Shown: positions 17,341 to 18,269 of the stretch, in pieces
Position numbering within the stretch: the first letter of the stretch is position 1
Layout: each line of letters begins with the position of its first letter
Source: Naegleria lovaniensis
Lineage: Eukaryota; Heterolobosea; Eutetramitea; Acrasida; Naegleriidae
Direction of reading: 5' to 3'
DNA length: 64,000 nt
NCBI RefSeq assembly: GCF_003324165.1
Contig: NW_025407846.1
Location: forward strand, 124,001-188,000
Translations under genes and position numbers: made by a program
The notes under the pieces: generated by a model
Told to the model about the DNA's origin: nothing
The model's input: only the letters and a program-made list of their open reading frames with translations
The model's database searches: none

Positions 17341-18269
17341 ATGCAGCGAACCTTCAGTTATTCAAGCCAGCAATACGGAACTTCAACACCTCCTCCATCT
17401 TCGTCGGGTGTGCCTTCAACAGCATCCTCGTCCTCATCGATATCACCTGTAAATAGCGGATCATCATCCGTTTCCCCATCCCAACAAAAAACTGGTTCCC
17501 AAGAGAAAGTTAAATTATTTGAAAATAGAAAGGAAAGAGAAAAGTATGAAAATATGGCTGAATTATATTCTTTGATTGTTTCTGTGGAAAGGTTAGAAAA
17601 AGCCTATGTAAAGGATTCCATCGTAGCCAATGAATATGCGGAAGCTTGTAGAAAGCTAATTGCAAAATTTAAAACAATTCAGCCAATTGTTTCGGCAGAT
17701 GTACCAGATATTGAACGATTCATGAAAGAATATAGATTGGATTGTCCTGCAGCAACTAACCGATTACTTAAAGTTGGTGTTCCAGCAACAGTTGAACACG
17801 GAGGAAAAGACCCTCAATCATCGACTGTTAAATTGATCGCACAAGCAACACAATACTTTATCACCGTAATGGATACCATAAAACTCGGATTGTTAGCCAA
17901 AGATCAGTTAGCTCCGATTTTGGTTGATCTCATGGATTGCCTGAATTCGTTACATATCAAAGACTTTGAAGGAAAGACAAAAATTAGACAATACAACCAC
18001 ACGGTCTGAATTACCCCCCCTGCGCAATCGAGAGGGGTACTCAACTGTCACAGCGCAGCTGGCTCGCAAAAAATTTTTTAATTTCTCTGGTGTAAGGAAT
18101 TACTTCGCGCAACCTTTTCTCAAGAAATTTGTGAAGAGTGGTTGTATTGGATTGGACTGTTACTTTTAACCAAATGAAGGCTCATGAAAGCTTGGATGAG
18201 GAACAATCACGACAATTATATTATGATGTAGAACAGGCTTATAACCAATTCCACAAGGTGTTGCAATAG
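17341..18269 (+). CDS. VPS28: ESCRT-I subunit VPS28, interrupted by a 161-nt insert
   Basis: VPS28 is part of ESCRT-I, which sorts ubiquitinated membrane proteins into multivesicular bodies. The ATG follows ATAAAAA. After a Ser/Pro/Gln-rich N-terminus the ESCRT-I core helices start at KVKLFENRKEREKYENMAE. The C-terminal four-helix domain, which binds ESCRT-II, starts near DPQSSTVKLIAQATQYF. It stays in frame to DFEGKTKIR (codon ending 17988) and then runs into a stop at 18007. The expected continuation DWTVTFNQMKAHESLDEEQS starts at 18150 and ends at a TAG at 18267-18269. Deleting exactly 17989-18149 gives a 255-residue protein that aligns to my recollection of human VPS28 without gaps across the junction. 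See the insert entry. Confidence 0.85.
17989..18149. other. Intron-like insert with 12-bp terminal inverted repeat, not GT-AG
   Basis: The insert starts CAATACAACCAC (17989-18000) and ends GTGGTTGTATTG (18138-18149), perfect reverse complements. No GT start or AG end exists that keeps the VPS28 frame. Inside are further complementary pairs: CTGCGC near 18019 with GCGCAG near 18053; ACCCC with GGGGT; AATTTCT near 18080 with AGAAATT near 18125. The RNA could therefore fold into a closed multi-stem structure. No target-site duplication fits: removing any extra flanking copy breaks the frame. The options are a non-spliceosomal or non-canonical intron with paired ends, a small element removed precisely, or an inserted element that inactivates the gene. 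Confidence 0.6.

What the first reader, a model, noticed from the sequence alone, without database searches (positions are those of the whole stretch)
17989..18149. Inverted-repeat-bounded, non-GT-AG insert in VPS28 whose exact removal restores the protein
The VPS28 frame breaks after KTKIR and the conserved C-terminal domain resumes at 18150. Removing exactly the 161 nt between CAATACAACCAC and its reverse complement GTGGTTGTATTG restores the frame (161 is not a multiple of three) and gives a gapless match to the conserved VPS28 C-terminus. No GT-AG pair fits. No target-site duplication fits either, since removing one more flanking copy breaks the frame. Internal complementary segments suggest a folded RNA. 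Every other intron in the window is GT-AG. This looks like an intron with base-paired ends, as known for euglenid non-conventional introns, or another precise RNA- or DNA-excision element not described for this lineage.
Basis: partly seen in the sequence, partly recalled or inferred. Interest (0 to 1): 0.88.

Follow-up and report, generated by a model that had tools for sequence, protein, structure and literature searches.

The report
Mobile DNA insert splitting Naegleria VPS28
The odd 161-base insert in this amoeba's VPS28 gene is one copy of a small jumping-DNA family that inserts without leaving the usual duplicated target bases; whether the cell also cuts it out of the messenger RNA is open and easy to test.

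Summary
VPS28 is broken by 161 nt bounded by a perfect 12-bp inverted repeat, and exact removal gives a gapless VPS28 C-terminal domain. It is not a lone intron. The same genome holds 11 loci of this 161-bp element, three shorter derivatives, and three long elements (2.3-3.7 kb) with the same 12-bp ends, one carrying intact 805-aa and 260-aa open frames. So it is a MITE, a non-autonomous DNA transposon. At 15 of 15 clean sites there is no target-site duplication of 3 or more bases, and a paralogous empty site equals the flanks joined exactly. Five of 15 sites lie in long frames, two are borderline, eight lie outside. VPS28 is single copy in the assembly. No GT-AG pair restores it without losing at least 10 conserved residues. 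The euglenid-intron features tested are mostly not met. Whether VPS28 is supplied by an uninterrupted allele or by end-paired RNA excision cannot be decided without reads. New here: a transposon lineage without target-site duplication or confident Pfam match, and a sharp test case for MITE-to-intron conversion.

The parts
17341..17988 (+). VPS28 coding part before the insert (216 codons from ATG)
   Evidence: PF03997 profile 1-153, E 9.2e-52
17989..18149 (+). 161-bp MITE inserted in VPS28
   Evidence: 10 full or nearly full-length copies at 96-100% in the genome; ends equal those of the long elements
17989..18000 (+). left terminal inverted repeat CAATACAACCAC
   Evidence: 12 of 12 complementary to the right arm; the 12-mer occurs 50 times in the genome against 6 for the backward control
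18138..18149 (+). right terminal inverted repeat GTGGTTGTATTG
18007..18009 (+). in-frame TGA if the insert is retained
18150..18269 (+). VPS28 coding part after the insert (39 codons and stop)
   Evidence: PF03997 profile 149-188, E 1.8e-11; alignment to yeast VPS28 C-terminal domain after joining

Best explanation
A recent insertion of a 161-bp MITE into the single VPS28 gene of the assembly. The element has 12-bp terminal inverted repeats and is presumably moved by the protein(s) of the long elements with the same ends. It inserts without duplicating target bases, so the empty site equals the two flanks joined. Shown: multicopy family, long coding relatives with the same ends, exact ends, no target-site duplication, an empty site in a paralog, interruption of VPS28. 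Inferred: cut-and-paste movement by the 805-aa protein, and a target cut without stagger. For the cell, I think it most likely (about 0.5) that functional VPS28 comes from an uninterrupted allele not shown by this assembly; RNA-level excision is the main alternative. The confidence below is for the MITE reading, not for the allele reading.
For: 18 genome matches, 10 full or nearly full length at 96-100%. Three elements of 3690, 2259 and 3733 bp with the same 12-bp ends; MITE and 3733-bp element are 84% alike over the first 62 nt and over a 37-column alignment at the right end. No duplication of 3 or more bases at 15 of 15 clean sites. Empty site in a paralog: 19 nt left and 60 nt right flank joined exactly. 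Seven exact 161-nt copies differ by 0-5 bases, mean 2.0. Two of five members of the 805-aa family match Transposase_21 weakly (best E 0.0079). Single VPS28 locus. Naegleria described as mainly heterozygous diploid (PMC9928731, passages).
Against: The 805-aa protein itself has no Pfam match and no solved-structure match (the family profile finds only a GCN4 chain at E 0.068), so transposase function is inferred. No uninterrupted VPS28 allele is seen in the assembly, and this copy's consensus is clean, unlike the ragged copies on C29 and C2, which gives no hint of a mixed site here.
Confidence: 0.93

Rival explanations
1. The MITE is cut out of VPS28 mRNA without the spliceosome: the paired ends form a stem, an endonuclease cuts at its base, and an RtcB-type ligase joins the exons, as in animal SOS splicing. 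The gene stays functional. (This concerns the fate of the insert; it is compatible with its being a MITE.)
For: Single-copy conserved gene interrupted; flush 12-bp stem at the ends; exact removal restores VPS28; four of five long-frame sites are in phase after exact removal; two RtcB-family matches in the genome; SOS splicing described for animals (PMC13247085, passages).
Against: Exact removal restores the frame for any insertion without duplication, so it does not show excision. Coding copies look depleted: 5 of 15 against about 73% of the window in frames of 150 aa or more, P 0.0015 (0.027 if the two borderline sites count). The two old diverged copies seen are not in long frames. No RNA evidence. 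CAAP1 search found nothing, without a positive control.
Confidence: 0.22
2. VPS28 is simply disrupted in the sequenced cells, or the product truncated by its last 39 residues, and this is tolerated.
For: Early TGA in the insert. Yeast survives loss of VPS28 (recalled, from no call).
Against: VPS28 is conserved and single copy here, and the part after the insert still matches PF03997, though a recent insertion would leave it so anyway.
Confidence: 0.17
3. Ordinary spliceosomal removal using sites in the element or nearby (an introner).
For: One GT-AG pair (18004..18179) keeps the frame, and an AT-AG pair (17991..18136) adds only 5 residues.
Against: The GT-AG version loses 10 conserved residues and scores 203.4 bits against 229; the AT-AG version scores 219.3, and its ATACAA start is not a donor type that I recall.
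Confidence: 0.07
4. Assembly fault: the insert is not at this place in the real genome.
For: Some copies have a ragged consensus (C29, C2), so the assembly is imperfect at such elements.
Against: The VPS28 copy is clean, identical to the C23 copy, and its flanks are continuous coding sequence.
Confidence: 0.04

Closest known systems
Spy transposons (PHIS superfamily); PMC4482050, passages
   Same: TIR DNA transposons without target-site duplication
   Different: Spy prefers AAATTT; no such motif at the 15 sites here. The 805-aa protein has no Pfam match.
CMC/CACTA-type transposons (tnp2, Pfam Transposase_21)
   Same: Weak tnp2 signal in two of five family members, best E 0.0079; TIR elements with MITEs
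   Different: CMC elements make 2-4 bp duplications (PMC4482050, passage); none here
SOS splicing of transposons from animal mRNAs; PMC13247085, passages, (primary paper not held)
   Same: Would remove a transposon from mRNA without the spliceosome; that paired terminal repeats are the signal there is recalled
   Different: Shown in animals with RNA data; here no RNA data
Euglenid and diplonemid non-conventional introns; PMC4770533, PMC11170887, PMC12621601, passages
   Same: Non-GT-AG ends brought together by pairing; MITE origin has been proposed for them
   Different: Flush pairing, first base C, copies outside genes, no RNA proof
Introners, including Amoebophrya (PMC7789003, passages) and TIR introners without duplication in Acanthoeca (PMC9860276, passages)
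   Same: MITE-like repeats with inverted ends found in coding genes
   Different: Those are introns supported by RNA data or annotation; Amoebophrya introners have 3-5 nt direct repeats; here removal from RNA is unproven

Membership tests
MITE (non-autonomous TIR DNA transposon) | Short, multicopy, nearly identical copies with terminal inverted repeats | tested here: met
   11 loci of the 161-bp kind among 18 matches
MITE (non-autonomous TIR DNA transposon) | Longer coding relative sharing the ends | tested here: met
   Three long elements with the same 12-bp ends; subterminal similarity
MITE (non-autonomous TIR DNA transposon) | Proof of insertion by an empty site | tested here: met
   C10 paralog of the C72 gene; VPS28 family itself
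MITE (non-autonomous TIR DNA transposon) | Target-site duplication (usual, not universal) | tested here: not met
   None of 3 or more bases at 15 of 15 clean sites
Spy (PHIS) transposon | No target-site duplication | tested here: met
Spy (PHIS) transposon | Insertion within AAATTT | tested here: not met
   Flanks of 15 sites show no such motif
CMC/tnp2 transposon | tnp2-type transposase | tested here: inconclusive
   Transposase_21 in 2 of 5 members, best E 0.0079; none in the 805-aa protein
CMC/tnp2 transposon | 2-4 bp target-site duplication | tested here: not met
Euglenid non-conventional intron | Purine as first intron base (51 of 55 in PMC4770533) | tested here: not met
   First base is C
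Euglenid non-conventional intron | Pairing +4,+5,+6 with -6,-7,-8, mostly CAG/CTG | tested here: not met
   +6/-8 is C/T; pairing is flush instead
Euglenid non-conventional intron | Purine at the start of the downstream exon | tested here: met
   Downstream exon begins GAT
Euglenid non-conventional intron | Removed from mRNA | not testable with these tools
   No RNA reads available
SOS splicing substrate | Transposon excised from mRNA and exons joined by RTCB | not testable with these tools
   No RNA reads; two RtcB-family matches exist in the genome
SOS splicing substrate | CAAP1 present (that it is an SOS factor is recalled) | tested here: inconclusive
   No match, but no control rang either

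The most novel reading that the evidence does not exclude
In a heterolobosean amoeba, TIR transposons that insert without target-site duplication are excised precisely from mRNA through their paired ends, so that a fresh MITE in a single-copy gene works at once as a non-spliceosomal intron. This would be a present-day first step of the proposed MITE-to-non-conventional-intron route, outside Euglenozoa and outside animals.
Probability: 0.18. Interest if true: 0.88.

Novelty: new variant of a known kind. Interest (0 to 1): 0.45.

Why it matters
It describes a lineage of eukaryotic TIR transposons that insert without duplicating target bases and whose 805-aa putative transposase matches no Pfam or solved-structure entry, together with its MITEs. 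Such insertions leave a reading frame exactly restorable, so they are ideal test cases for how non-spliceosomal introns arise. One RT-PCR on VPS28 would tell whether a discoban outside Euglenozoa can remove a MITE from mRNA.

Tried and rejected
Lone intron or structured RNA: rejected as the primary reading after 18 genome matches. Rfam gave two matches far below their gathering scores. Folding is unremarkable.

Target-site duplication: the GA/GA at the window site is a chance match, since removing it too breaks the frame; the other 14 clean sites show 0 or 1 base.

L021 (129 nt, C29) first looked like an old diverged copy inside a gene. Alignment showed it to be the same locus as L014 (C87), the difference in the compared 1401 columns being 37 gaps and no mismatch. 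It is no evidence for an old intron-like copy.

L014 (frame with a PH-domain match): exact removal leaves the halves out of phase. The assembly there is ragged, so I drew no conclusion from it, but it counts as the one of five not in phase.

Gapped patterns for short TIR-bounded elements: none at the shorter range and one at 98 nt. The 44-nt copy has a mismatch and escapes such patterns, so these counts are lower bounds.

First splice-pair enumeration had a wrong end point and was replaced.

Classifying the 805-aa protein by PDB sequence and profile, phage records and viral contigs gave no relative. Structure prediction was not run: its stated rule does not list loci fetched by the genome search.

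Full report
CHECK. The window holds VPS28 on the + strand. Pfam PF03997 matches 17341-18009 (profile 1-153) and 18135-18269 (149-188). Between the frames lie 161 nt whose ends are a perfect 12-bp inverted repeat. Kept, the insert stops translation at 18007. Removed exactly, the protein is 255 aa, scores 229 bits over the whole profile and aligns without a gap to three solved yeast VPS28 C-terminal chains, the W beside the junction included. I tested 473 GT-AG, 398 GC-AG, 1163 AT-AC and 957 AT-AG pairs. The least damaging GT-AG pair loses 10 conserved residues and adds 5 and scores 203.4 bits. An AT-AG pair adds only 5 residues (219.3 bits), but its ATACAA start is not a donor type that I recall.

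IT IS A REPEAT. Sorting all 18: 11 loci of the 161-bp kind (the one on C2 with a ragged consensus), one second contig of one of those loci (C29), two 98-nt derivatives, three ends of long elements, and one partial match on C52 that I did not resolve. The TIR 12-mer occurs 50 times, against 6 for the backward control. Of 21 unpaired 12-mer places I fetched 20. One is a 44-nt derivative. Two (L073, L077) look like old diverged copies and are not in long frames. Two more have short weak matches, and in the rest I saw no likeness. Seven exact 161-nt copies differ by 0-5 bases, mean 2.0.

LONG RELATIVES. Three elements of 3690, 2259 and 3733 bp carry the same 12-bp ends. MITE and 3733-bp element are 84% alike over the first 62 nt and over a 37-column alignment at the right end. 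The 3733-bp one has an 805-aa and, convergent to it, a 260-aa open frame (both stop to stop). In the other two the 805-aa frame is broken or partly lost, while the 260-aa frame is open. The 805-aa protein has 29 matching stretches in the genome, several from one element. It has none in Pfam, PDB sequences or phages. The family profile finds only a GCN4 chain at E 0.068, and viral contigs gave no relative. Among five family members two match Transposase_21 weakly, best E 0.0079. The 260-aa protein has one Pfam match below cut-off (CBP_BcsQ, E 0.0059). I read the lineage as DDE-type and tnp2-like; that is inference.

NO TARGET-SITE DUPLICATION. At 15 clean sites there is no direct repeat of 3 or more bases. 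Four rows were left out of that count: L017 and L020 (ragged ends), L021 (same locus as L014) and L025 (one end only). Two empty sites support this: the VPS28 protein family itself, and a C10 paralog of the C72 DUF4116 gene in which 19 nt of left and 60 nt of right flank stand joined with nothing between.

WHERE COPIES SIT. Long frames on both sides were found at 5 of 15 sites: VPS28 (217|39 open codons), a cyclase-like gene (521|806), a DUF4116 gene (300|220), an unnamed frame (376|622) holding the 3690-bp element, and a frame with a PH-domain match (68|574). In four of these five the halves are in phase after exact removal; in the PH case they are not, in a ragged assembly. Two more sites are borderline (L011, L028); eight lie outside long frames. 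About 73% of the window lies in frames of 150 aa or more, so coding copies look depleted: P 0.0015 for 5, 0.027 for 7. The 73% is a crude six-frame figure from this window alone. Depletion argues against the element being fully invisible to its host genes.

WHAT HAPPENS TO VPS28. It is the only VPS28 found in the assembly. The genome fits N. lovaniensis in size, GC and contig number (PMC6125883, passages: 30.8 Mb, 37%, 111 contigs; window GC 37%); the identity is inference. Naegleria is described as mainly heterozygous diploid (PMC9928731, passages). A second, uninterrupted allele missing from the assembly is therefore the plainest explanation (about 0.5). For RNA excision speak the single-copy status, the flush stem, the clean consensus of this copy, two RtcB-family matches and the precedent of SOS splicing in animals (PMC13247085, passages; the primary paper was not held; that paired terminal repeats are its signal is recalled). 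Against it speak the depletion in coding frames and the lack of any RNA evidence. A CAAP1 search found nothing but had no working control.

COMPARISON. Euglenid non-conventional introns pair +4,+5,+6 with -8,-7,-6 and mostly begin with a purine (PMC4770533, passages). Here pairing is flush, +6/-8 does not pair and the first base is C; only the purine after the intron fits. It should not be filed there. Those papers name MITEs or transposons as a proposed source of such introns, which makes this case useful. Amoebophrya introners have inverted repeats, 3-5 nt direct repeats and RNA support (PMC7789003, passages). TIR introners without duplications are mentioned for Acanthoeca (PMC9860276, passages). 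Spy elements lack duplications but prefer AAATTT (PMC4482050, passages). I saw no description of this Naegleria family in the listings of searches, which cover only the open library; this does not show that none exists.

VERDICT. The thing is a young MITE, of a TIR transposon lineage that makes no target-site duplication, inserted in VPS28. Intron behaviour is possible but unproven.

Noticed in passing
L014 (C87) and L021 (C29): Two contigs of one locus. In C29 the element and about 30 nt of flank have only gap-type differences from C87, mostly at runs of one base: a polishing fault, possibly the mark of a mixed (heterozygous) site.
   Followed up: partly
L042-L046, L082-L084: A sister transposon family (951-aa frame, copies on C36, C46, C72, C86 and C13) has 12-bp ends CACAACAATTTA in the three copies whose left end I read. 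Two of these three show AT on both sides, so a 2-bp duplication is possible there.
   Followed up: partly
L068:96-139 (C17:13535): A 44-nt derivative that is little more than the two terminal repeats.
   Followed up: partly
whole genome G000: 205 matches to one DUF4116-repeat protein, a very large repeat-protein family.
   Followed up: no
C22:501837 and C55:114631: Two RtcB-family matches of quite different score (407 and 246 bits), perhaps two ligases of different origin.
   Followed up: no
L039, L040 (C31, C20): A 1155-aa relative of the 805-aa protein; one of five family members matches a Zn2Cys6 cluster domain, by eye this one.
   Followed up: no
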